64,000 nucleotides of DNA. It comes from an uncultured SAR116 cluster alpha proteobacterium. Its GTDB lineage: Bacteria; Pseudomonadota; Alphaproteobacteria; Puniceispirillales; Marisalimonadaceae. This document shows, one piece after another, positions 21,292-34,740 of this stretch. The notes below the pieces were generated by a model. It saw only the letters and a program-made list of their open reading frames with translations. It did no database searches and was not told where the DNA came from. The position numbers and the translations under genes are program-made. Where the stretch lies: assembly GCA_902524215.1 (NCBI GenBank), contig CABZCK010000001.1, forward strand, positions 62,001-126,000, read 5' to 3'. Position 1 is the stretch's first letter. Each line of letters starts with the position of its first letter.

Positions 21292-22272
21292 ATGTTTACG
21301 AAAAAAATTGGAATAATCGGATTAGGGAGTTGGGGTAAAAATATTTATCGAAACTTAAATTTTTTTAATGTGGTAGAATTAGTATATGATGATGATTTAA
21401 ATAATCAAAATTTCAATTTAGTAGAAAAAAATAAAATAACCAAAAGTGTTAATGATATATTTTTGTCAAAAAAAATTGATAGCGTAATCATTGCAAGCCC
21501 TGCAATAACTCATAAAGATTATATAATAAAATCGCTTATAAATAATAAAAATGTTTTTGTGGAAAAGCCTTTATGCCTATCTCTTAATGATTCTAGAGAA
21601 ATTGAAAGAGTTGCAAAAGAGTTTAAGAAAATCGTATTTACTGGTCACCTTTTACAGTACCACAATGCCTTTCAAGAATTAAAACGGAATATTAAATTTG
21701 GTAAGATTGGACATTTACAGGTAATAAAAGCTAATAGATTAAACTTTGGCGCAATTAGAAAAACAGAATCTGTTTTATATGATTTAGCATCTCACGATAT
21801 ATCTATGATTTTATCAATAACTAATAAACCACCAATAAAAGTCGATGTTAATGCAATTTTTAAAAACTCAGAAAAAATTGCAGATTATATAAATATTATC
21901 TTATATTTTGAAAAAAACCTAATAGCAATTCTTAATGTAGATTGGATTAGTCCATATAAAGAACATAGATTTAGTGTATTTGGATCAAAAGGTAGCTTAA
22001 TATTTGATGACACTAAAAATTGGAAAAACAAACTAATTTTCAATCCAAGTTATCTTAACAAAAAGAATGAAGTTGTTTATAAACCAAACATTTCTATCAC
22101 AATTCAAGAAGAAGAGCCTTTAAGGAAAGAGATGGAATCCTTTTTAAATTGTATTCATCACGGCGATACGCCAATAACTGATATTAATGAAGCTATAAAT
22201 GTTCAAATAGTTTTAGAGATAATAGAAAAAAAATTAATTAGTAAATATGGATTATGTAATGGAATTTATTGA
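21292..22272 (+). CDS. Gfo/Idh/MocA family oxidoreductase (start taken at MFTKKIGIIGLG)
   Basis: IGIIGLGSWGKN Rossmann, VFVEKPLCLSL. Confidence 0.85.
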   Translation: MFTKKIGIIGLGSWGKNIYRNLNFFNVVELVYDDDLNNQNFNLVEKNKITKSVNDIFLSKKIDSVIIASPAITHKDYIIKSLINNKNVFVEKPLCLSLNDSREIERVAKEFKKIVFTGHLLQYHNAFQELKRNIKFGKIGHLQVIKANRLNFGAIRKTESVLYDLASHDISMILSITNKPPIKVDVNAIFKNSEKIADYINIILYFEKNLIAILNVDWISPYKEHRFSVFGSKGSLIFDDTKNWKNKLIFNPSYLNKKNEVVYKPNISITIQEEEPLRKEMESFLNCIHHGDTPITDINEAINVQIVLEIIEKKLISKYGLCNGIY

Positions 22273-23419
22273 CTTAAAAACTCAGCAAAAATTAATTAGA
22301 AAGAATATAGATGAAAGAATTTCTGATGTTCTAAATCATGGCCAATATATTCAAGGCCCGGAAATAAAGGATTTGGAAAACAAACTTTCTATTTTCTCAA
22401 AATCTAAATATGTATTATGTTGTTCTAGTGGAACAGATGCTCTTCTTTTAGGATTAATAGCACTTGGATTAAAACCTGGAGAAGCAGTGATAGTTCCCTC
22501 TTTTACTTTTGCCTCAACTGCTGAAGCAGTTTGTATGTTAGGGGGGATACCTTTTTTTTCAGATGTTAAATTAAACACATTTAATATTTGTGAAAAAAGT
22601 ATTTCTAAATGTATTCAAAAATCTAAAAAATTAGGTATTTCGATAAAGGGAATTATAACAGTTGGTTTGTTTGGTCAACCCTGTGACATGAACAAAATTA
22701 AAGAAGTAGCTGATGCAAATAAAATCTGGATTTTCGACGATGCAGCGCAATCTTTTGGTGCTAAATATAATAATAATATATCAGGAAATTTGTGTGAAAT
22801 TTCTGCAACATCTTTTTTCCCTGCTAAACCTTTAGGTTGCTATGGTGATGGAGGTGCTCTATTCACAAATAATGAAAGTTTTTACAAAATAGCTTATTCT
22901 TGTCATTTACACGGAATGGGAACTGATAAATATAAATATGAAAGAATTGGTCTTAATGGAAGGATTGATACATTACAAGCGGCAATCCTTCTTGAAAAAT
23001 TAAAATTATTTAAATCTGAATTAGTTAAAAGAGATAAAATAGCTAAACATTATAAGAAAGCTTTCCAAACATTGAATACAAATATTAAATTGCCTACAGT
23101 GATACCTAAAACAAAAAGTAGCTGGGCTCAATTTACAATTCAACTCTCAAAAGGTTGTAACAGAGACAAATTACAAGTCGAATTAAAAAATAAGAATATT
23201 CCTACTGCAATATATTATCCAATCCCAATACATTGTCAAACTCCTTATAAAAACTTTCCTATTTCATCTGATAATCTTAAAAATACTAATATTTTATCAA
23301 AAAATGTTATTTCTCTTCCAATGCATCCTTATCTAACAAAACAAAACATTGAGTATATTACACAAACTTTACACAATATTATAAATAACCAAAAACAAAT
23401 AAATTTCTTGCCTACTTAA
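22247..23419 (+). CDS. DegT/DnrJ/EryC1 sugar aminotransferase
   Basis: FIDLKTQQKLIRKNIDERI, CSSGTDALLLGL, FDDAAQSFGAKY, SFFPAKPLGCYGDGGA. Confidence 0.93.
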   Translation: MDYVMEFIDLKTQQKLIRKNIDERISDVLNHGQYIQGPEIKDLENKLSIFSKSKYVLCCSSGTDALLLGLIALGLKPGEAVIVPSFTFASTAEAVCMLGGIPFFSDVKLNTFNICEKSISKCIQKSKKLGISIKGIITVGLFGQPCDMNKIKEVADANKIWIFDDAAQSFGAKYNNNISGNLCEISATSFFPAKPLGCYGDGGALFTNNESFYKIAYSCHLHGMGTDKYKYERIGLNGRIDTLQAAILLEKLKLFKSELVKRDKIAKHYKKAFQTLNTNIKLPTVIPKTKSSWAQFTIQLSKGCNRDKLQVELKNKNIPTAIYYPIPIHCQTPYKNFPISSDNLKNTNILSKNVISLPMHPYLTKQNIEYITQTLHNIINNQKQINFLPT

Positions 23420-23447: not shown

Positions 23448-23522
23448 GCGGGCGTAGCTCAGGGGTAGAGCACAACCTTGCCAAGGTTGGGGTCGAGGGT
23501 TCAAATCCCTTCGCCCGCTCCA
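23448..23522 (+). tRNA. tRNA-Gly(GCC), CCA encoded
   Basis: Cloverleaf: acceptor gcgggcg/cgcccgc, anticodon loop ttgccaa (GCC), T-arm gggttcaaatccc, terminal CCA. Confidence 0.97.
23483..23522 (+). repeat. attL core (3' part of tRNA-Gly)
   Basis: aaggttggggtcgagggttcaaatcccttcgcccgctcca, identical to 33835-33874. Confidence 0.95.
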
Positions 23523-23578
23523 GTTCGTCTTCGACAAGTTCTCTCAAATCTTTGGATTTCTAACCTTTTTAAAACTAT

Positions 23579-24751
23579 TTGTTTTTGAAAGGGTTCAAAA
23601 TGGTAGACAAATTGAACTATAAATATCTTTATCGAAAAAGAGATGTTTATTATTTCTCTAAACAAATCCCAAAAGATATTCGAAGCCATTATTTAAAAGA
23701 TCGAATGATCATTTGTTTAAGAACTAAATGCCCTAAAGATGCAACAAAGCTTCGTGATTCAATCTTATCAAAGCTGAATAGTCATTGGTTAAATTTAAGG
23801 ATGCAGAATGATGAGATACCCGGAATATCCTTGCTGAAAAATAGTTCAAATACAAAGAAAATAAACCATATTCCAAGACTCTCAGAAGCTCTTCAAACCT
23901 ATTTTAAGCTAAAAGGTTCAGGAAAAGGTGAGATCTTTTTTAGAGCGTCCAGAAGGGTTGTAAGGGACGTTATAAGCCTATTAAAAGATCGTTCTTTAGA
24001 TGAGTATACAACAACTGATGCATCAAGATTTAGAGATCATTTGCTAAGTAGGGGACTTGTATCATCAACAGTAAGAAGGGTGTTTTCAATCATTCGTGCG
24101 ATCATTAATTTATCCATACAAGAGCATGGATTAGAGTGTAAAAATGCTTTTGCTAAGAGGTATATCCCAGACCTTGAGGACTCTATTCAAAGAATGCCTA
24201 TACCTTTAGAAACAATCAAAGTAATCCAACAAGAATGTATGAAAATTAATGATCCCAATCGATGGCTTATTGCACTCTTATCAGATACTGGCATGCGATT
24301 ATCAGAAGCACTTGGATTAAAAATGGAAGATATAAAACTGAATGAAAAAATACCTCATATAAATTTAATTCCTAACTCTACTCGTAAATTGAAAACGAAA
24401 TCAAGCTCACGACAAATTCCTTTAGTAGGTGCAGCACTATGGGCTGCAAATCAAATCTCATTGAATGTGAAAGATGAATTTGCTTTTCCTCATTATACTA
24501 AAAAGGAATATTGTCATACAAATTCTGCAAGTGCTGCATTAAACAAATGGCTTAAACCAAGAGTTCCCAAAAAATGTGTCATTCATAGTTTTAGACATAG
24601 TATGAGAGATAGATTAAGAGAGATAAATACCCCAAGTGAAATGATTGACCAAATAGGAGGGTGGTCTAATCAATCTATAGGCAAAAATTATGGATCTGGA
24701 TATACATTAAAAAATTTACTTGAAGCAATGCATAAAATTTCAGATGATTAA
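23579..24751 (+). CDS. tyrosine recombinase/integrase
   Basis: LLSDTGMRLSEALGLKMEDI (R), SSSRQIPL, HSFRHSMRDRL (HxxR), GGWSNQSIGKNYG (Tyr); N-terminal YLYRKRDVYYFSKQIPKDIR typical of alphaproteobacterial integrases. Confidence 0.95.
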   Translation: MFLKGFKMVDKLNYKYLYRKRDVYYFSKQIPKDIRSHYLKDRMIICLRTKCPKDATKLRDSILSKLNSHWLNLRMQNDEIPGISLLKNSSNTKKINHIPRLSEALQTYFKLKGSGKGEIFFRASRRVVRDVISLLKDRSLDEYTTTDASRFRDHLLSRGLVSSTVRRVFSIIRAIINLSIQEHGLECKNAFAKRYIPDLEDSIQRMPIPLETIKVIQQECMKINDPNRWLIALLSDTGMRLSEALGLKMEDIKLNEKIPHINLIPNSTRKLKTKSSSRQIPLVGAALWAANQISLNVKDEFAFPHYTKKEYCHTNSASAALNKWLKPRVPKKCVIHSFRHSMRDRLREINTPSEMIDQIGGWSNQSIGKNYGSGYTLKNLLEAMHKISDD

Positions 24752-24754
24752 TAG

Positions 24755-25939
24755 ATGAAATTTATAATAAATATTCTGTTTGTAATGAGTATTTTTATAA
24801 CTCCTCAAACCTTTGCTGACACATTTAAATCTAAACGAGCAGAAGCTATTAAGAATTATAAAAATGGTGAAGTAAAATTAGCTTTTAAAAAATTAGAAGC
24901 TTTAGTGAAAAAAGGCGATAGTGAAGCAGCTCGTGACATGGCACTTATTTTTTTAAAAGGCAAATTAGACAAAGATAAAGCATATGTTTGGTTTGAAAAA
25001 GCAGCAAAAATGTGTAATTCTCGTGCTCTAGAGTATTTAAAAATTATATACTTTGAAAGGGGAAGTTTTTATTTTAAGCCCTCGAGAATTGAATACCTCA
25101 AATCTAAATGTAAGAATTATAAAAATAAAAATATAAAAATATCTGAAAAGCCTAAAAAGAAACTATTTAAAAAGAAAAATTCTAAAAATAAAACTAGCAA
25201 CATTCAAAAGAAACCAACTTTTATAACTAAAAGAGTAGAAAATACGTGGAAACAAATAATTCCTTATAAAAATGAATTAAAAAGAATAGGTCATGGTTCT
25301 GCATTCGCGATCTCAAAGAATGGTCATTTTTTAACAAATGAACATGTAATATCAAGATGCATAGAGGTCGATATCCTATATAATAAAATGCTTGGGAAAG
25401 CCAAGATATTAAAAACGAACAAAAGTTTAGATGTTGCAATTCTTAAAGTAAATGCCTTAACTCCATTCTATTTAAATTTTGATGACAAAAATTATGTCAT
25501 TGGTGAAACGTTATATGCTGCTGGATATCCATTTACTATTAATTTAGTAAGGAAAAAAAATCTTGCCTCCCCAACTTTAGCTTTTTCAAGTGGTGAATTA
25601 GTAAACACAGAACTATTTCAAACAAATAGATTAATTGTCAGTATTCCAATTGCAAGTGGGAATAGTGGCGGTCCTGTGATTGGTAAATATGGTCTTATTA
25701 GAGGACAAATCACTTCAGGTTTTAAAATGGAAGATAGTTTAAAAAAAATTAAGTTAGATAAATACCTCTCAGAAAATATCACATATAGTGTTATGTCATC
25801 ATCTATAATGTTGAAAAAATGGATTAACGATACTAATATATTATTTTTAAGAAAAGGAAGAAGAATTGAAAAATATGATTCTGATGAAATTGGAGAAATA
25901 GCAACGCGAACAGTCGCGTATGTTGCTTGTTATAGATAG
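24755..25939 (+). CDS. secreted Sel1-like/trypsin-like serine protease
   Basis: Signal peptide MKFIINILFVMSIFITPQTFADT; ALKDMAL-type Sel1 region (ARDMALIFLKGKLDKDKAYVWFEKAAKM); protease GHGSAFAISKNGHFLTNEHVIS (H), SLDVAILKV (D), ASGNSGGPVIG (S). Confidence 0.88.
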   Translation: MKFIINILFVMSIFITPQTFADTFKSKRAEAIKNYKNGEVKLAFKKLEALVKKGDSEAARDMALIFLKGKLDKDKAYVWFEKAAKMCNSRALEYLKIIYFERGSFYFKPSRIEYLKSKCKNYKNKNIKISEKPKKKLFKKKNSKNKTSNIQKKPTFITKRVENTWKQIIPYKNELKRIGHGSAFAISKNGHFLTNEHVISRCIEVDILYNKMLGKAKILKTNKSLDVAILKVNALTPFYLNFDDKNYVIGETLYAAGYPFTINLVRKKNLASPTLAFSSGELVNTELFQTNRLIVSIPIASGNSGGPVIGKYGLIRGQITSGFKMEDSLKKIKLDKYLSENITYSVMSSSIMLKKWINDTNILFLRKGRRIEKYDSDEIGEIATRTVAYVACYR

Positions 25940-25941
25940 TT

Positions 25942-27219
25942 ATGAAAAGTTTATTGTCCAAATCGTCTTTAGACAGACTTTTGAAACTAGACGATCAAGA
26001 AAGAAATCGTCTTGAAAGAAAAGGTGTTGAAATGGGAACAATTAATTCGCCTGCACCCTCAGCTAAATCACTTTGCCAATTTGAGTTAGATGAAAAAAAT
26101 AAACTTATTAAAGCATTTAAAAAGTTTAAAAACGATGCATCCAAACAATTAGAAAAACTGAATAAAGAGAAAACACAGTTACATAAAAAATTAGATATTC
26201 AGTTACCAAAATTTGCAGAACGAACTGAAGAAAACATTCAACTAGAAAGAGATCAGACAGAACAAACACTTGGAGAAAAAAGTAGTAAATTTGAAGAGGC
26301 TAAAAGTAAGTATTGGGAATCACACAAAGTTTTATCTACCATTAAAATTCAAGTTAACCAGAGACCTTTAAGTACACAATTTGTAACATTTTATGTACCT
26401 TTTATGATACTTCTTGCTTTTGCAGAAGTTTTTGTAAACAGTTTAGCATTTGAACTTTTCTTTGAATCAAGTCAATTAATATCCATTATTGTAGCAACTG
26501 GGGTTGGAGCAATGCTAGTCTTTTTTGCCCATATCACAGGCTCATCATTTAAAAGAACTCAATCAAAAGAAATACCTGTGTCTAAAGCTAATACTTATTT
26601 GTCAATGGGTGTTTTAAATAGTCTTGTTGTTGTTTTAATTTTTTACTTGTCCAAAATGAGACAAGCATTTGTGTCTATAACTAATCAAGAGGAACAAGGT
26701 TTTGGCATTGATCCAGATAAACTTCTTAGCTCAGACACACCGGGGCTTAATGAAGCACTTGGATCACCAAATATTCTAGATGCTCTTATGCAAGTTAATC
26801 TTGGTCCAGAGGGTATGTTTTTGTTGCTTATCAATGTTGCTGTTTATGTTTGTGGTTTTGTAGCAGCTTTCGTGCGACACGATACTCACCCTGACTATGA
26901 AAGGGCACAAAAAAATTATGATAAAGACCGTAAAGAATTGTTTAAAGTCCGAAAATTATTAGATGATAAGTTAGCTAATATTGATAAAAAAAGAGCAGAT
27001 ATGTATCAAAAAAACAAACAAGAAACAGATATTTCAGAAGAAGATCTTAGTCAAATTGATGAAGAATTAGATGAATTAAATAGTCTTATTTCCGAGCTTA
27101 GTAATAGAGTTAATGAAATTTTTAATGAAAAGTTAAGTATTTTTAGAAATGCAAATATTAATAATAGAAAAAAACCTTCCCCAGAATATTTTAAAGAGGA
27201 TAGTTATAAAATTGTTTAG
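25942..27219 (+). CDS. uncharacterised membrane protein: coiled coil, ~4 TM helices, C-terminal coiled coil
   Basis: Hydrophobic segments FYVPFMILLAFAEVFVNSLAF, SIIVATGVGAMLVFFAH, YLSMGVLNSLVVVLIFYL, MFLLLINVAVYVCGFVAAFV flanked by Lys/Glu-rich heptad-like regions. Confidence 0.75.
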   Translation: MKSLLSKSSLDRLLKLDDQERNRLERKGVEMGTINSPAPSAKSLCQFELDEKNKLIKAFKKFKNDASKQLEKLNKEKTQLHKKLDIQLPKFAERTEENIQLERDQTEQTLGEKSSKFEEAKSKYWESHKVLSTIKIQVNQRPLSTQFVTFYVPFMILLAFAEVFVNSLAFELFFESSQLISIIVATGVGAMLVFFAHITGSSFKRTQSKEIPVSKANTYLSMGVLNSLVVVLIFYLSKMRQAFVSITNQEEQGFGIDPDKLLSSDTPGLNEALGSPNILDALMQVNLGPEGMFLLLINVAVYVCGFVAAFVRHDTHPDYERAQKNYDKDRKELFKVRKLLDDKLANIDKKRADMYQKNKQETDISEEDLSQIDEELDELNSLISELSNRVNEIFNEKLSIFRNANINNRKKPSPEYFKEDSYKIV

Positions 27220-27919
27220 GTTATTATCCATTATTTTTGTTTTTAACCTAACAAGCTTAGGAGTTTTAGCTTCAGAAAAATATTGTCTTAAAGAAGAAAC
27301 TTCTAAACCTATAGTCATTAATATATTTGGAGAAAGTTACCAAAATAAGGACGATAAAAGAGCCTTCTTAAATGGATTAAATAAAATTAGTCAAAGTTTT
27401 AAAGCAGGAAATAGGATTAGAATTGTCACTCATAAGAATGAAAACGCTAAGATTCAAATTGATCAATGTGTACCGGGATGTCCAAAAAAAGATTTTCTCG
27501 ATAAGCTTATTGACACTGATTGTAGTGTTCAGGTTGCAAAAAAAGATATGGTTATTTTTAAGAACAGATATAGCAAAATAATAAAATCTGAATTAGCTAG
27601 AGGGGGTAATGAATACAGCGTTATTGATCATCTATCTAGTTTGGATAATTATTATAGAGGAAGAAACTTAAGTAATCAAAAAACATATATTTTTCATTCA
27701 CTTTTACCATATGATGTTGACCCTAATGATAAAAATTCTTTTAATAAGAACTTTGTTCAAATAACCCAAAGCTTTGACTTATCTGAGATTTCATTGCCTG
27801 ATGTTACCTTTATAAATCCAAATAGAAGTAAAAATACTTTAAAATTTTGGGATGATCTTAAACTTGACGGAGATCAATCGGGCTTACAAGTGGAATTCGA
27901 AACTAAAGTTATTGATTAG
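27213..27919 (+). CDS. secreted vWA-like protein (start uncertain; TTG 27213 overlaps upstream stop, ORF-track start 27149)
   Basis: LFRLLSIIFVFNLTSLGVLAS signal peptide; IVINIFGESYQ, CVPGCPKKDF, late LPDVTFINPNRSKNTLKFWDDL matches the layout of vWA-like proteins with a C.PG and terminal FW motif. Confidence 0.6.
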
Positions 27920-30149
27920 AACTAGAATTACTTATATTACTTTTTGAGGGCTTCTTTTTACAATTGTTTTCCCCTTCAGGACAACATATAGGATTTATTG
28001 TAACTGCATTAATTGCTTGATTTGAAGCAACATCATACATTTTCTTTTTAGTAAGTTGTTTCTTAGCCCAAGCACAAACAGGTCTACATTGGTTAAATAA
28101 AAATTTCTTAAGATCCATCTTTCTATTTGAAAAACAATCTGTTTTTTTTCTGACTTTTGCAGCCAAACTATTCTTTTTTCTTAAAATTTTTATCATTTCT
28201 TCAGCTTGTGGAGTACTTGAGTAACTTGAGAAAATTGGATTTTGATTATATAAATCAAATAACATTGCTGTGCTTTTATCATCTCCAGCTTCATGACCTT
28301 GCATTAGAAAATTAATTACAACTGGTTTAATCTCCTCAGGAGAATAAGCTCTAGCATTGGCTGATAATTGATCTTTCATAATAGTCGCGATTATTTCGCA
28401 TCCAATAGCTTGGTTAGAATCGCAAGCTTTTTCTGAAAGTTCATGAGCCTCATCATAATCTTGGTTATTAAAAGCTATCTCAGCTTTTTTATAAATAACT
28501 GTACCATCATTAGCACATATTTTACCTAGTCTATCAAAATCAACATCTAAATATTGATGGTTTACTCCTAATCTCCACTCTTCAGTTAAATAAACTTCAT
28601 AATCTGAACATGAATTTTTTCCATTTAATCTAATTTCAATTAACACTTTGTTTTTATCGAAATCTATTTGAGCTTGCATCATGAGTGCTTGCATTGATTT
28701 CTTTCCCTTTTTTGAAGGACTGACTACTTTAATGCACTTTCCAGCTAACTTTCTTTGTGCTTTTTGGATTATCTCTATATCAAATTCATTTTTATTAGTG
28801 GCATATTTTAATGCATTACAATCATTATAAATCTTAGTCTCTAAAAATTGACGTGCATATTGACTATCATCTTGTTTAATTAAACCGATATACACTTCCT
28901 TAGAAAATGGAATTTTATTCATATTTCTAACAACTTTTGATGAAGAAATTACTTCAGACATTACCACGTCCTCTTTATATTCTGTTTTAAATAAATATAT
29001 CAAATCCGAGATAGTTTGCGGCTTTAGGACATTCCAATTTATATTACTAAGAACAACACCAACATCTTCTTCTTTACTTGCAAATTCGGTAGGGTTTCCT
29101 TCCGCTAACAGCTCCGCCTCTAACTTCAACTCTTTTCCAATGATTTTTTTGCTTAAAGGAGATGATGAAAGAAAACTCTTAGCTTTTTTAAAATGGGCTC
29201 TTGGATCATTTTCTAAAGATTTCAAAATTGAAGCAAAATCAACGTCATCGCCAGATTCAGCATTTTCCATCATCAGCAACGCTATTTTTTTACTCTTAGG
29301 AAGACCTTTATCGCCATTTCTCCACCATTTAGATACGATAGGAGATGCTTTTGTATCTCCTGCTATTGCAGCGAAGACACAAGACAGAGGATTACCTTTT
29401 GATTTAAAACCTAATTTACTTTTTTTTATATTACATGATTTAAAATCGTAACCGTACTGGTTTGCAATTTTTGATAATTTATTAATTTGTTTATCACTAG
29501 CTTTTTCATAAAATTCTGGCAATTTCTGTACAAGAGGATTTAAATTCGCACCCGATTTCGGCTTTAACATACGATTTGCAGCTTTTATAAAATCATTAGT
29601 ATTTCCTTTATCAAAAGAAATTAGATAATAACTGGATGCATTGCCTTCCAAATGCCCACTAACGATACATCTTGCAATCTTGTTTGCTAATTTTTTGTCT
29701 CTCTTATTATAACTCTTACAAGCTTTTTTACTGATCGCTCCACTTAATTTTATATAAAGTTTGTCTCTTTTCTTTTTACATTTTGATGAACCATTTTCAG
29801 CGCATTTTTCATAATATTTTAATGCAAGTTTATTGTTTTGTTTTGAAAACTCTCCCTCTTCATAGTTTATTGCTAAAAATATTATTGCTTTTTGATAGTC
29901 ATCATCAGCTGCAGATTTTATAAATTTTAAACCTTTTTTAACGTTTTCTTCAGAAGAACCCTCTCCTCCAATTAATATTTTACCTATTATAAAAAGACTC
30001 TCTGGGTCACCATTTAATGCTTTAGCATAACCTAATCTATAGGCTGCATCAAATTCTTCATTTTCATATAAATCTGTTACTTCACCAGCTTTTAATGATC
30101 CTGATATTAAAATAAAAAGTACAACTAATATCTTTTGTAAGAAATTCAT
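27909..30149 (-). CDS. large secreted Sel1-repeat protein
   Basis: Signal peptide MNFLQKILVVLFILISGSLKAG; Sel1-type repeats (AYRLGYAKALNGDPESLFIIGKILIGGEGSSEENVKKGLKFIKSAADDDYQKAIIFLAINYEEGEF). Confidence 0.75.
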   Translation of the reverse strand: MNFLQKILVVLFILISGSLKAGEVTDLYENEEFDAAYRLGYAKALNGDPESLFIIGKILIGGEGSSEENVKKGLKFIKSAADDDYQKAIIFLAINYEEGEFSKQNNKLALKYYEKCAENGSSKCKKKRDKLYIKLSGAISKKACKSYNKRDKKLANKIARCIVSGHLEGNASSYYLISFDKGNTNDFIKAANRMLKPKSGANLNPLVQKLPEFYEKASDKQINKLSKIANQYGYDFKSCNIKKSKLGFKSKGNPLSCVFAAIAGDTKASPIVSKWWRNGDKGLPKSKKIALLMMENAESGDDVDFASILKSLENDPRAHFKKAKSFLSSSPLSKKIIGKELKLEAELLAEGNPTEFASKEEDVGVVLSNINWNVLKPQTISDLIYLFKTEYKEDVVMSEVISSSKVVRNMNKIPFSKEVYIGLIKQDDSQYARQFLETKIYNDCNALKYATNKNEFDIEIIQKAQRKLAGKCIKVVSPSKKGKKSMQALMMQAQIDFDKNKVLIEIRLNGKNSCSDYEVYLTEEWRLGVNHQYLDVDFDRLGKICANDGTVIYKKAEIAFNNQDYDEAHELSEKACDSNQAIGCEIIATIMKDQLSANARAYSPEEIKPVVINFLMQGHEAGDDKSTAMLFDLYNQNPIFSSYSSTPQAEEMIKILRKKNSLAAKVRKKTDCFSNRKMDLKKFLFNQCRPVCAWAKKQLTKKKMYDVASNQAINAVTINPICCPEGENNCKKKPSKSNISNSSSNQ

Positions 30150-30297
30150 ATCAATATTATATTAATGATTCTATTTTCTGCAATAGTATTGAACATGTTT
30201 ATTAATTAACTGTTCTTAGTATAGGCCCTCTGGGACCCTCTTTATTAATATAGTATTCTGAATTGTTATATAAATTACATTAATATAAGTTACCTTT

Positions 30298-31668
30298 ATG
30301 CATTCATTCAATGAATTATGTAAAAAGATATCACATGAAATAGATTCAAAGGATATACGTTCACGTTCAAGAACTGAAAAAGAACAGAAAAGATTTGATT
30401 ATGCTGTCACCCATCAATTAATAGAACTTTGGAAGAAACACTTCACACATCATGATCATGAATCTTCTATACAAAAGAATAAAAATTATTATTCATCTTT
30501 ACAAATATATCGTGATCCTAATCTAACTTACCGTATGGCTATGCAAGTCTTTGAAGGACTGCAAAAATTAAACTTAATTACTGTAACTAAAGAAGGGCAT
30601 TATGACCGAATTAAACTGGAAGGAAATTTAACTCGTTATAAAGCAACTCATGAATTATCTGAATTGTTTAATCAAATAGAAGGGCATCCAGCTATCTCTT
30701 TAAAACCTCACTTAGATATCAATACGATTTTACTAAGAGATAAAGTAGAGGGCAGAAGATTATTAGTTTCTTATGAAGATGATGATGATACCAATAACTG
30801 GAGAAAAAATCTTAAGGATATCAACTCGTGTTTTGCAAGATATATAATTGATTTAAGGTTAAAAGATACAGAGTTTACTTCATTACAAGAAAGATTATTA
30901 AACGATGATGATAGGGAGCCTATAGATCTTTCTAAAAAAGCATTAGTTCGTATTTTTATCAATAACTCCTTCAAACAAGGAGGCAGATTTTATAGAGGAT
31001 GGTGGCAAAATGTACCAAGTGAATTTAGACCATACATAACTATTAACTCAAAAATGACACAAGAATGTGATTACTCACAACTGAATCCTAATATGATTTA
31101 TGCTCTTCATAACCATGAGTTAGGAAGTGAAGATGCTTATTCCAGAGTACTAGGACCTGAACATAGAGATGTGGTTAAAGAAGCTTTTAACGCAATGTTA
31201 CAATCTAACACTGAACTAAAAAGTAAACCCTCAAAATTAAACCTTGATGAAATTGGAATGTCTTGGACTGAACTTAGACAATCTATATTAAATGCCCATA
31301 AACCCATTAAGGACTTATTTTTTACTGGCATAGGTAATAGATTGCAATTCGAAGACAGTATACTTGCAGAGGATGTAATGCTTCATTTTTCAAAGATGGA
31401 TTATCCCGCTTTACCAGTTCACGATAGCTTTATAATTCATCATGCATTCGGATCATCTGGTGAATTAGAAGAAGCAATGAGAAGGGCTTATTACAATAGA
31501 AATGGCAAAGATATTGGTGTCTCTAATGAAATCATAATATATCAAACTGATAATAAAAATAACAATAAATCGGATGAAACATTTGATGATATTTTAAATC
31601 CTGAACCAGAATATTCCCAATGGAGTAACAGAGATGATTTATGGAAAAAAGAAAAGAATAGTATTTGA
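30298..31668 (+). CDS. compact family-A DNA polymerase palm-like protein
   Basis: ECDYSQLNPNMIYAL (motif A-like, D codon 258), HRDVVKEAFNAML (motif B-like, codons 289-301), LPVHDSFIIHH (motif C-like, D codon 376), in polymerase A order; no exonuclease domain. Confidence 0.6.
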   Translation: MHSFNELCKKISHEIDSKDIRSRSRTEKEQKRFDYAVTHQLIELWKKHFTHHDHESSIQKNKNYYSSLQIYRDPNLTYRMAMQVFEGLQKLNLITVTKEGHYDRIKLEGNLTRYKATHELSELFNQIEGHPAISLKPHLDINTILLRDKVEGRRLLVSYEDDDDTNNWRKNLKDINSCFARYIIDLRLKDTEFTSLQERLLNDDDREPIDLSKKALVRIFINNSFKQGGRFYRGWWQNVPSEFRPYITINSKMTQECDYSQLNPNMIYALHNHELGSEDAYSRVLGPEHRDVVKEAFNAMLQSNTELKSKPSKLNLDEIGMSWTELRQSILNAHKPIKDLFFTGIGNRLQFEDSILAEDVMLHFSKMDYPALPVHDSFIIHHAFGSSGELEEAMRRAYYNRNGKDIGVSNEIIIYQTDNKNNNKSDETFDDILNPEPEYSQWSNRDDLWKKEKNSI

Positions 31669-31752
31669 TCTTCGTAGTACTTCTGTGTAATTAGCACTCA
31701 TAACAAATGAATAGTGATTAATTAAAGAGTTTTTTTTGGATAAACTTTTTAA

Positions 31753-32187
31753 CTATTCTTTATCTAATTGGTGATTATAAAAATATGAGCATCTCATAAC
31801 ATTATGTTTTTGAGGATCAATATTCATAGTCATAATTTCTTCTAAAGAATAAGTTCCTAACATTGGACCTTTTACATTTAACCACTTAGGATAGCTACAA
31901 CCATATTTATCAAGTTTCTCATTAGAAATATGATTGTATTCAATTACATCTAGAAAATAATCTTTAAAGTAATACATACCATTCACCAACTCTGGAGGAG
32001 TGAAGCCATTTTTAATAAGATGTTGAACTTTAGAATACATATGTCTTCCGTCCATTGTAGTGAAACGAGTTAATCGTCCATCATCTTCATCAGACATATT
32101 GTCATTAACCCATCCTACCCAACCACCGGGATACTTTTTTCTAATTATATCTTTGGTAGTAAATAAACTTTCGAATAAAGATTTCAT
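31753..32187 (-). CDS. hypothetical protein
   Basis: 144-aa ORF, no recognised family; convergent with the polymerase-like gene. Confidence 0.6.
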   Translation of the reverse strand: MKSLFESLFTTKDIIRKKYPGGWVGWVNDNMSDEDDGRLTRFTTMDGRHMYSKVQHLIKNGFTPPELVNGMYYFKDYFLDVIEYNHISNEKLDKYGCSYPKWLNVKGPMLGTYSLEEIMTMNIDPQKHNVMRCSYFYNHQLDKE

Positions 32188-32255
32188 AAAATAATTGCCT
32201 CAATATTACCTTTTTCTATACCAAATCTAATCACAATTTTAAGAATAATGATATC

Positions 32256-33584
32256 ATGAAACGACAATCCTCCATCGTTTTTATTTTATGCATAAAACTC
32301 CTCGTAGCATTAGCTGTTCAATCAGCTAGTGCTACTAATCAAATAACGAAGTTAAAAATTGGTAAATTCTTTTTAGAATGCGATGGTAAGTGCACAGAAC
32401 TATACAAATTTCGAGATCAAGGATTTTTAAGATTTGGGACTGATAAACAAATTATTACCAATGATGACAGAACCAGTATATTTACCTATCACATAATTAA
32501 TGATTTTCCAGAAAATAAAATTCCACATTTTTGTATTGATGGTGGCCCAGATCTTAAGATAGGTAAAACGATATACTCTTATAAAAAAGAGACTAACACA
32601 TTTTCTTTCTTTAATAATAAACCAACTGCAATAGGAGTATATACATCAAGGTGGGGCGCTACAGGCTGGGGGACCTCGACAGTTCATATTTTTGATACTG
32701 AGACTGGAGAATATTATTCAGAAAAATCTAGTGCTTGTACTTATCCTTTATTTATTAGGAACAAAGATGGTTCTGTACAATATCAAATAAAAAGCGAAAC
32801 TGCGAACTTCTTTGGACCTCCTAATTTTTCACCTGTTTATTTAGATGTTCCGATATCTGTTAAGGATTTGAAAGGTAAATCTCATCCCAATATACTCTCC
32901 TTGCATTATCAAAAAAAATTTATGGATGTAGGATTTGAAGATAGTTTTTTCAGTAACAGAGAAATAAAAGTTTTAGCCAAAATGTTTACACAATGGGATC
33001 TTCAAGATAGATATCCACAAAGGTGGGCCATAGAACTTGATCAAGGTCAAATAGAATTACTTAGACGATTCATTATTGTTGTTGGAATTGATATTCTGCA
33101 AAAAGGTTATTATCCATTAAGTCAACAATTCAAAAGAGATGATTATACAACACTTTTATTGAAAAGAGCTGCAAGACAAATTTCCTATGATTTTCCAGTA
33201 TCTGATTTCGAACTCCAAGAAGATTTTCATCATCGTTACAAATTAGACTTTCTGAAAGAAGTAAACATCAATTTAGACGCATTTATGGATCCACTTTATC
33301 GGGCTCCATATGAAGAAATTTGTAAATTAGCGACCTACGAAAAAAACAATCAAAAATTTTGGAATTTTGATAGTTATAAAAACCTTGCTGCTGTCCAAGT
33401 TGCTAAAGAAAGTAATATTAGTTGTGGGACTAAATTATTTTTAAATGAGTTTGATTTTGAACATATTTGCGACAAGGCGACAACTACAGATGGAAGTTGG
33501 ACAAAAGATGGGGTTTTACAAGAATTTGTAAAAGAAGCTAAAAACAAAAAACTAAATTGCAAAATAATTGAACAGATGTTCTAA
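32256..33584 (+). CDS. hypothetical secreted protein
   Basis: Signal peptide MKRQSSIVFILCIKLLVALAVQSASA; 442 aa with several Cys, no recognised family. Confidence 0.7.
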   Translation: MKRQSSIVFILCIKLLVALAVQSASATNQITKLKIGKFFLECDGKCTELYKFRDQGFLRFGTDKQIITNDDRTSIFTYHIINDFPENKIPHFCIDGGPDLKIGKTIYSYKKETNTFSFFNNKPTAIGVYTSRWGATGWGTSTVHIFDTETGEYYSEKSSACTYPLFIRNKDGSVQYQIKSETANFFGPPNFSPVYLDVPISVKDLKGKSHPNILSLHYQKKFMDVGFEDSFFSNREIKVLAKMFTQWDLQDRYPQRWAIELDQGQIELLRRFIIVVGIDILQKGYYPLSQQFKRDDYTTLLLKRAARQISYDFPVSDFELQEDFHHRYKLDFLKEVNINLDAFMDPLYRAPYEEICKLATYEKNNQKFWNFDSYKNLAAVQVAKESNISCGTKLFLNEFDFEHICDKATTTDGSWTKDGVLQEFVKEAKNKKLNCKIIEQMF

Positions 33585-33664
33585 ATCGAAACAAACATTA
33601 GTAATCAGTTACTTGTACAAGTTATGGTACAACATAAGACGGTTGCACCACCACATGCATATAT

Positions 33665-33685
33665 AGGACACCCTCCCGGTGTCCT
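33665..33685. other. perfect 8-bp stem-loop aggacacc-ctccc-ggtgtcct near attR
   Basis: Inverted repeat read directly; not followed by a T-tract, so terminator status uncertain. Confidence 0.7.
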
Positions 33686-33834
33686 TGCCTCCCCCTAAAT
33701 TAAAATAAATAAGATTACAAAACGGTAGACAAATAGCGAGCACGTTGACAGCGTATTTGAATAAGTTAAAATTAAAAGCAAAAGGTTAAGAGCATGGAAA
33801 GGCAATCAGAGGCTTATATTCAGAGTTACTGACA

Positions 33835-33874
33835 AAGGTTGGGGTCGAGGGTTCAAATCCCTTCGCCCGCTCCA
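33835..33874 (+). repeat. attR core (partial tRNA-Gly copy)
   Basis: Identical 40 bp to attL; no 5' half of the tRNA upstream. Confidence 0.95.
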
Positions 33875-33927: not shown

Positions 33928-34740
33928 GTGAATATGAAAGCTGTAAGTTTTAATATTGCGAGAAAGTTGAGCTCAAAAGAAATAAGAAAGAAGATTAGGT
34001 TAGAACTTTATAATAATCACACCTCGGGTTTGGCGTCTAATAAACTTCAAGCTAACATTGTTATTCTTCCAAAAGAATATGTAAATGATTTTTATAATTT
34101 TTGTAAATTAAATCCAAAATCATGCCCTTTGGTAGGTCAAACAAAATTAAAAAATCCATATTTTGACTCTTTAGGAGATGATATTGATATTAGATTTGAT
34201 GTGCCATTATACAATATTTATAAAAATGGAAATTTAGTTTCTAGTATTCGAAATATTAAAGAATATTGGAATGATAATTTAATAGCTTTTGCCATTGGCT
34301 GTTCTTTTTCATTTGAAGATGCATTATTAAATGCTGGCCTTGAAATTGACCACATTACAAATAACAAAGTTGTTCCAATGTATAGGACAAATATAAAAAA
34401 TAAAAAAAGTGGACCGTTTAACAGTGAAATGGTCGTATCAATGAGAATTTTTAATAGAAAAAATATAGATAAAGTTAAGCAGGTTTCAGGAGATTTTACT
34501 TTTGCTCATGGAGATCCAATTCATATAGGTAATCCAATTGAAATTGGAATTAATAATATATTAAGTCCTGACTGGGGAGACAGTCCTAGAAAAAAAAATG
34601 AAGACGAGGTATATATTTTTTGGGCTTGTGGAGTAACACCTCAAAACGCTATTATAGAAGCAAAGATCCCATTTTGCATTACTCATACACCCGGGCATAT
34701 GTTAATTACAGACATTTCAGAGAATAATTTACATAAATAA
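33928..34740 (+). CDS. DUF1445/YcsI-type putative hydro-lyase (D-glutamate cyclase family)
   Basis: SGLASNKLQANIVILPKEYVNDFYNFCKLNPKSCPLVG, FAIGCSFSFEDALLNAGL, THTPGHMLITD. Confidence 0.88.
   Translation: MNMKAVSFNIARKLSSKEIRKKIRLELYNNHTSGLASNKLQANIVILPKEYVNDFYNFCKLNPKSCPLVGQTKLKNPYFDSLGDDIDIRFDVPLYNIYKNGNLVSSIRNIKEYWNDNLIAFAIGCSFSFEDALLNAGLEIDHITNNKVVPMYRTNIKNKKSGPFNSEMVVSMRIFNRKNIDKVKQVSGDFTFAHGDPIHIGNPIEIGINNILSPDWGDSPRKKNEDEVYIFWACGVTPQNAIIEAKIPFCITHTPGHMLITDISENNLHK

What the first reader, a model, noticed from the sequence alone, without database searches (positions are those of the whole stretch)
23483..33874. Compact tRNA-Gly island without phage structural genes, rich in secreted proteins
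A perfect 40-bp direct repeat of the tRNA-Gly 3' end bounds ~10.35 kb. The left copy lies in an intact tRNA with encoded CCA; the right copy lacks the 5' half. Eight genes: integrase, secreted Sel1-trypsin, 4-TM coiled-coil protein, secreted vWA-like protein, secreted Sel1 protein, PolA-like protein, one small unknown, one secreted unknown. Four of eight carry apparent signal peptides and one is multi-TM. That is unusual for a satellite or phage remnant and suggests an envelope-directed function (defence, predation resistance or competition; function is inference).
Basis: partly seen in the sequence, partly recalled or inferred. Interest (0 to 1): 0.85.

Follow-up and report, generated by a model that had tools for sequence, protein, structure and literature searches.

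The report
Mobile tRNA island with envelope-defence-like module
In the genome of a marine SAR116 bacterium, a 10-kb piece of mobile DNA sits in a glycine-tRNA gene and carries four linked genes for inner-membrane and periplasmic proteins; two of them belong to a little-known gene pair that elsewhere sits beside the motor genes and nucleases of Zorya-like anti-phage systems, so this may be a new, protease-armed kind of envelope defence, though the function is not proven.

Summary
A perfect 40-bp copy of the tRNA-Gly 3' half bounds a 10,352-bp, eight-gene element in a SAR116 alphaproteobacterium. Its integrase keeps its catalytic residues. The G011 relative carries the same kind of element, bounded by the same repeat, and its right junction lines up with the element-free site of G010. 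Element genes are 97-98% identical (DNA) to G011 or G009, while the left-flank genes are about 72-75%, so the element has moved recently.

The cargo contains a four-gene module: secreted Sel1-trypsin protease, coiled-coil four-TM protein (tm4), secreted vWA-like protein and convergent secreted Sel1 protein. It recurs in 9 of 136 genomes of the order, at tRNA-Gly and, with a different integrase, at tRNA-Val. Its genes are intact and under purifying selection, and survive where integrase and PolA-like genes are lost.

The tm4-vWA pair is homologous to a pair found in other Alphaproteobacteria. In 13 of 29 such pairs the next genes are ZorA-like and usually ZorB-like, often with a staphylococcal nuclease (fused to ZorB in two). 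I therefore read the module as an envelope conflict system, probably anti-phage, in which periplasmic proteolysis replaces the Zorya-like motor and nuclease. The anatomy is shown; the function is inferred (about 0.4). I found no published description.

The parts
23448..23522 (+). tRNA-Gly (GCC), intact, CCA encoded; integration site, left end
   Evidence: ARAGORN; Rfam tRNA
23483..23522 (+). left 40-bp repeat (attL core), tRNA positions 36-75
   Evidence: same boundary in G011 and G020
23579..24751 (+). tyrosine integrase with DUF6538 N-terminal domain; R, HxxR and Tyr catalytic residues present
   Evidence: Pfam; PHROG phrog_1; residues; 97% aa identical in G011
24755..25939 (+). module gene 1: secreted Sel1-trypsin protease, triad H197/D226/S304 intact and invariant
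   Evidence: Pfam Trypsin_2 1e-15; alignment
25942..27219 (+). module gene 2: tm4, four-TM protein flanked by cytoplasmic coiled coils, motif RHDxHPDYE after the last TM
27206..27919 (+). module gene 3: secreted/periplasmic vWA-like protein (likely start near 27213), conserved cysteines, degenerate MIDAS
   Evidence: fold not confirmed
27909..30149 (-). module gene 4: secreted Sel1-repeat protein, convergent; conserved N-terminus, strongly divergent allele bodies
   Evidence: Pfam Sel1; alignment
30298..31668 (+). PolA-like protein (phrog_4756): family A polymerase palm, motif A DYSQ, motif B R-x3-K, motif C HDS
31753..32187 (-). 144-aa protein of unknown function that travels with the element (G011, G015, G022, G066)
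32256..33584 (+). secreted 442-aa accessory protein; position swapped for other secreted genes in relatives
33835..33874 (+). right 40-bp repeat (attR core), partial tRNA-Gly
33928..34740 (+). right chromosomal flank, D-glutamate cyclase (not part of the element; marks the site)
   Evidence: Pfam PF07286; site survey
22247..23419 (+). left chromosomal flank, aminotransferase (not part of the element; marks the site)

Best explanation
The region is a tRNA-Gly-targeted integrative element (tyrosine integrase plus PolA-like polymerase) that carries a four-gene envelope conflict module, most likely an anti-phage system. Proposed mechanism: tm4 forms an inner-membrane assembly with cytoplasmic coiled coils and a periplasmic loop, and the periplasmic vWA-like protein sits on it as partner or sensor. 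A disturbance of the envelope, such as phage adsorption or DNA entry, is passed through this pair and licenses the periplasmic Sel1-trypsin protease. The protease cuts entry proteins or host envelope proteins, which blocks or aborts infection. The strongly allelic secreted Sel1 protein would be the recognition or inhibitory subunit. In other Alphaproteobacteria the same tm4-vWA core is paired with a ZorA-like/ZorB-like motor and a staphylococcal nuclease, so the core is shared and the output is exchanged. Shown: mobility, the conserved module, homology and operon context, intact catalytic residues, purifying selection, allele swapping. Inferred: complex formation, sensing, protease activation, defence.
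For: Element: 40-bp repeat; same 40-bp boundary in G011 and G020; G011 right junction collinear with the element-free G010 site over 1,549 alignment columns starting at the tRNA 3' half. Transfer: window vs G011 int 98% nt and polA 97% nt; window vs G009 trypsin, tm4 and 442-aa gene 97% nt; left-flank genes only 72-75% against both. Module: the four genes recur at tRNA-Gly in seven genomes (sel1 cut by the contig end in G036) and in full at tRNA-Val in G066, bounded by a 64-bp repeat and with a different integrase; G050 shows trypsin and tm4 at a contig end. ORFs intact, dN/dS 0.1-0.4. Zorya link: hhalign tm4 vs plasmid-type tm4 99.1%, E 1e-18; plasmid-type profile A13 without SAR116 rows finds the window tm4 at E 5.5e-14; vWA families linked at 98%. 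In 29 of 29 distant tm4 pairs a vWA-like gene follows directly, including 10 loci not used to build the models; 13 pairs continue with ZorA-like and mostly ZorB-like genes. ZorB-like proteins match PADLOC ZorB at 1e-25 to 1e-33 in four loci, two of them with the ZorB-like gene fused to SNase.
Against: No ZorA/B homologue and no nuclease lies in the window element, so the link is by two steps of association. SAR116 vWA alone does not match the distant vWA family; the link needs intermediates L087, L103 and L085. The vWA fold is unconfirmed and its MIDAS is degenerate in SAR116. ZorA matches are weak (about 1e-5 to 1e-6) and partly coiled coil. The trypsin family also serves envelope quality control (HtrA/DegS). 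No phage-challenge data exist. The module is rare (9 of 136) and several copies appear fixed without an integrase.
Confidence: 0.4

Rival explanations
1. Envelope module for antagonism or resistance to predators, competitors or grazers: secreted Sel1 and protease act on other cells or on surface structures, not on phages.
For: Secreted protease and Sel1 proteins; the G001 island at the same tRNA is rich in secreted proteins and lipoproteins with several trypsin-like genes.
Against: No secretion system, toxin domain or immunity gene recognised in the element; the core pair keeps company with Zorya-like genes elsewhere.
Confidence: 0.2
2. Envelope stress or quality-control module (HtrA/DegS-like) that gives a niche advantage; the mobile location is incidental.
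For: Trypsin domain matches HtrA/DegS-type models; OmpA and glycine-zipper neighbours of the distant tm4-vWA pairs are envelope-maintenance-like; purifying selection.
Against: Patchy, tRNA-island-borne distribution (9 of 136), allele swapping and nuclease, CHAT or caspase neighbours elsewhere fit conflict systems better.
Confidence: 0.2
3. Phage satellite that hijacks a helper; the secreted genes are its interference or lysogenic-conversion cargo.
For: Compact size, tRNA site, integrase, a polymerase-like gene with remote phage relatives.
Against: No terminase, capsid, packaging or remodelling gene; tm4 and Sel1 have no relatives in phage records and tm4 none in viral contigs; four of the seven tRNA-Gly module loci show no integrase gene.
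Confidence: 0.1
4. Decaying, immobile genomic island: cargo is passenger DNA and the repeat a fossil.
For: G009, G015, G033 and G036 lack int; G007 keeps only an int fragment; PolA-like is broken in G009.
Against: In the window int, PolA-like and all module genes are intact; 97-98% nt identity of element genes against 72-75% for left flanks.
Confidence: 0.08

Closest known systems
Zorya anti-phage systems (ZorAB plus effector; types I-III)
   Same: Envelope-anchored; distant homologues of tm4-vWA sit in operons with ZorA-like, ZorB-like (OmpA) and nuclease genes; effector modules vary, as in Zorya (PMC11890865, PMC8565338).
   Different: The window module has no ZorA, ZorB or nuclease; the output is a periplasmic trypsin-like protease with Sel1 proteins; tm4 and the vWA-like protein are not described Zorya components.
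vWA-MoxR ternary conflict systems (Kaur et al. 2020, PMC7159879)
   Same: vWA-like component, trypsin and Sel1 domains, swappable outputs.
   Different: No MoxR NTPase, no VMAP; components are secreted or periplasmic rather than cytoplasmic.
tRNA-integrating elements of marine bacteria (tycheposons, PICMI and similar)
   Same: Tyrosine integrase, tRNA 3'-end repeat, small size, variable cargo (from general knowledge; the defining papers were not read here).
   Different: PolA-like polymerase family with DUF6538 integrase; no packaging-related genes.
HtrA/DegP/DegS proteases
   Same: Periplasmic trypsin-like fold with intact triad.
   Different: Sel1 N-terminus, no PDZ hit, operon with tm4-vWA.
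Family A DNA polymerases
   Same: Palm with motif A Asp, motif B R/K and motif C Asp; best Foldseek hits are Pol I structures.
   Different: Short (456 aa), no Pfam DNA_pol_A hit; motif C reads HDS.

Membership tests
tRNA-targeted integrative element | site-specific recombinase with intact catalytic residues | tested here: met
   Phage_integrase 4e-16; R, HxxR and Tyr present
tRNA-targeted integrative element | flanking att repeats derived from the tRNA 3' end | tested here: met
   40/40 bp; same boundary in G011, G020
tRNA-targeted integrative element | empty site in relatives | tested here: met
   G011 right junction vs element-free G010 collinear from the tRNA 3' half onward. For the window itself G012 is near-empty, but its flank differs by about 0.5 kb
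tRNA-targeted integrative element | excised circular form | not testable with these tools
   no reads available
Zorya system | ZorA (MotA-like) present | tested here: not met
   no ZorA match in the element
Zorya system | ZorB (OmpA/MotB-like) present | tested here: not met
   none in the element; present beside distant tm4-vWA homologues
Zorya system | cytoplasmic nuclease/helicase effector | tested here: not met
Zorya system | anti-phage activity | not testable with these tools
   needs phage challenge
vWA-MoxR ternary systems | MoxR ATPase and cytoplasmic vWA | tested here: not met
   no ATPase in the element; vWA-like protein has a signal-peptide-like N-terminus
Phage satellite | packaging, capsid-remodelling or helper-interference genes | tested here: not met
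   PHROG scan shows only integrase, a protease-like match and unknowns
Trypsin-like serine protease | His-Asp-Ser triad | tested here: met
   H197, D226, S304 invariant
vWA domain | vWA fold / MIDAS motif | tested here: inconclusive
   no Pfam hit and no vWA-type PDB hit; AF2 pLDDT 34; distant homologues have DxT near strand 1, SAR116 does not
Family A DNA polymerase | palm fold with catalytic aspartates in motifs A and C | tested here: met
   Foldseek Pol I E 5.6e-5; D258 and D376 invariant in 17 sequences

The most novel reading that the evidence does not exclude
tm4-vWA is the core of an undescribed, widespread alphaproteobacterial envelope defence superfamily with exchangeable outputs: ZorAB motor plus staphylococcal nuclease, OmpA lipoproteins, caspase or CHAT proteases and, on SAR116 tRNA islands, a periplasmic trypsin-Sel1 output. 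The last would be an immune system that acts by proteolysis in the periplasm.
Probability: 0.3. Interest if true: 0.85.

Novelty: new variant of a known kind. Interest (0 to 1): 0.6.

Why it matters
If right, it adds two components (tm4 and a vWA-like partner) to Zorya-like envelope systems, gives a set of operons with ZorB-nuclease fusions ready for testing, and shows a branch in which the output moved to the periplasm. It also explains part of the variable gene pool of SAR116, an abundant ocean lineage, through small tRNA-borne elements that swap alleles of one envelope module. The operon family makes the function directly testable in plasmid-bearing laboratory Paracoccus or Rhizobium.

Tried and rejected
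AF2 of the vWA-like protein with the three sequences allowed: pLDDT 34, useless. Profile searches of tm4 and vWA-like proteins against the PDB: nothing meaningful. tm4 in viral contigs, phages and plasmids with the window sequence: nothing; distant homologues found plasmids. PolA-like by Pfam: no hit; its PDB profile hit to a ribosomal protein is chance. SAR116 vWA alone vs distant vWA: not significant. I considered positive selection on Sel1 and rejected it: synonymous sites diverge too (pS about 0.6-0.7), so it is allele replacement. Rfam: only the tRNA. LeoBC/LmuB PADLOC hits are coiled-coil noise. A literature search for ZorA with thermonuclease or staphylococcal nuclease returned nothing relevant; the library lacks most subscription papers, so absence there is weak evidence.
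Full report
Setting. The window lies in G000:C1 (62001-126000) of a partial genome, 1.23 Mb and 55% complete. Neighbour genomes are SAR116-cluster single-cell genomes (AG-891-N20 contig = G011, AG-914-E17 contig = G009). The host is therefore a marine SAR116 alphaproteobacterium.

Observation. tRNA-Gly(GCC) at 23448-23522 is intact, and its last 40 nt recur without mismatch at 33835-33874, spacing 10,352 bp. Between them are eight genes: integrase, Sel1-trypsin, a four-TM coiled-coil protein (here tm4), a vWA-like protein, a convergent Sel1 protein, a PolA-like protein, a 144-aa and a 442-aa protein. Pfam confirms integrase with DUF6538, Trypsin_2 and Sel1. Hydropathy shows four signal-peptide-like N-termini and the multi-TM core of tm4. 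PHROGs finds no structural or packaging genes.

It is a mobile element. In relatives the site aminotransferase - tRNA-Gly - D-glutamate cyclase is variously near-empty (G012, G008), filled with the same kind of element (G011, G022), filled with rearranged versions (G009, G015) or with other genes (G001, G006, G020). The same 40-bp 3' half (tRNA 36-75) bounds the 11.97-kb G011 element and a 2.6-kb insertion in G020. The G011 right junction is collinear with the element-free G010 site over 1,549 columns, starting at the tRNA 3' half. For the window the right flank is cleanly homologous to relatives from about 14 bp after the repeat, but G012, the closest relative without the element, has about 0.5 kb more between tRNA and cyclase; the exact ancestral empty site was not found.

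Transfer and mosaicism. Against G011, int is 98% and polA 97% identical at DNA level, while the left-flank aminotransferase and oxidoreductase are 75% and 72%; right-flank genes are 85-91%. Against G009, trypsin, tm4 and the 442-aa gene are 97%. A 200-bp scan shows the element switching: int and polA about 98-100% like G011, trypsin-tm4-vWA about 97-99% like G009, and a Sel1 body unlike both (63-75%) behind a nearly identical N-terminus. Synonymous sites diverge equally, so this is allele replacement, not positive selection.

A four-gene module. A tm4 profile finds 9 of 136 genomes of the order. In seven the module lies at tRNA-Gly (G000, G009, G011, G015, G022, G033, G036; sel1 is cut by the contig end in G036). 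In G066 the full module lies at tRNA-Val in an element bounded by a 64-bp tRNA repeat, 15.04 kb, with a different integrase; in G050 trypsin and tm4 are seen at a contig end next to tRNA-Val. G009, G015, G033 and G036 have no recognisable integrase, and G015 and G033 show no PolA-like gene, yet the module ORFs examined are intact, with dN/dS 0.1-0.4. The module is thus kept by selection and has moved between elements. The trypsin triad H197/D226/S304 is invariant.

What the core pair is. More distant tm4 relatives were found in other alphaproteobacterial families and on Paracoccus, Rhizobium, Sinorhizobium, Microvirga and Novosphingobium plasmids. hhalign links SAR116 tm4 to the plasmid type over 361 columns at 99.1%. 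A profile without any SAR116 row finds the window tm4 at E 5.5e-14. The vWA-like families link at 98% when intermediates L087, L103 and L085 are included, but not from SAR116 alone. In 28 distant loci all 29 tm4 genes are directly followed by a vWA-like gene on the same strand; 10 of these loci were not used for the models. Thirteen pairs continue with a ZorA-like gene, mostly followed by a ZorB-like OmpA gene; ten carry an OmpA lipoprotein instead; six have neither, among them loci next to a caspase-FGE gene (L107) or a possible TIR/deoxyribosyltransferase-like gene (L103, read by eye, no Pfam hit). SNase genes are adjacent or close in eight loci and fused to the ZorB-like gene in two more, L104 and L165. 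ZorB matches reach 1e-25 to 1e-33 in four loci tested, against about 1e-15 for the OmpA-lipoprotein type used as yardstick; some ZorB-like genes of the set match weakly or not at all, and ZorA matches are weak.

PolA-like gene. Family phrog_4756 is present in 29 of 61 relatives, often in several copies and mostly without the module. AF2 (pLDDT 71) and Foldseek place it with family A DNA polymerases. Motifs DYSQ, R-x3-K and HDS are conserved. A DUF6538-type integrase lies near some of these genes (L066, L068 and, by eye, L098). I infer that it serves replication or maintenance of the element.

Mechanism. I propose that tm4 and the vWA-like protein form an envelope sensor or scaffold, and that in SAR116 the output is the periplasmic Sel1-trypsin protease, with the allelic Sel1 protein setting specificity or inhibition. 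In relatives the output is a ZorAB-like motor plus nuclease. Everything after homology and context is inference; the defence reading rests on association with Zorya-like genes, mobile location and allele swapping.

Comparison. It is a member of the tRNA-targeted integrative elements. It is not a Zorya system: ZorA, ZorB and the nuclease were looked for in the element and are absent. It is not a vWA-MoxR ternary system: MoxR is absent (PMC7159879). Published Zorya work found in the library describes ZorAB with ZorCD, ZorE or ZorFG (PMC11890865, PMC8565338) and, in the passages searched, no tm4 or vWA component.

Verdict. Observation confirmed; interpretation partly supported and refined. Interest 0.6: the link to an apparently undescribed tm4-vWA-ZorAB-SNase operon family is the most valuable part.

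Noticed in passing
L131 6929-12084; L132 4070-8817; L134 6935-12494; L130 6944-11248; L104 5295-10572; L160, L162, L164-L167: Apparently undescribed operon family tm4-vWA-ZorA-like-ZorB-like, often with a staphylococcal nuclease, in other Alphaproteobacteria and on plasmids; ZorB-like fused to SNase in L104 and L165.
   Followed up: partly
L132 4070-11052 and 17502-20935: Sinorhizobium fredii plasmid carries two different tm4-vWA operons about 9 kb apart, with a CHAT-domain protein and a thermonuclease nearby.
   Followed up: partly
L140 1862-4548: G020: 2.6-kb insertion at the same tRNA-Gly bounded by 76-bp repeats (95%), with secreted Sel1-type genes and no integrase; may be moved in trans.
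   Followed up: partly
L138 and L054 (G001:C5:19288-36010): G001 has a 16.6-kb stretch at the same tRNA-Gly rich in secreted proteins and lipoproteins, with several trypsin-like genes.
   Followed up: no
window 32256-32340; L055 12020-12940; L084 6147-7067: Similar signal-peptide leaders (MKRQSSIVF...) precede otherwise unrelated secreted proteins, as if bodies are swapped behind a fixed leader.
   Followed up: no
L061-L069, L098-L101: PolA-like phrog_4756 family is abundant in SAR116 relatives and occurs in viral-labelled contigs; L098 has two copies with a DNA methyltransferase-like gene and an integrase near by.
   Followed up: partly
L107 5961-11000: tm4-vWA pair beside caspase-FGE and FGE genes.
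   Followed up: no
L055 13235-14074: G011 accessory gene contains six tandem 108-bp (Sel1-length) repeats, 77-83% alike.
   Followed up: no
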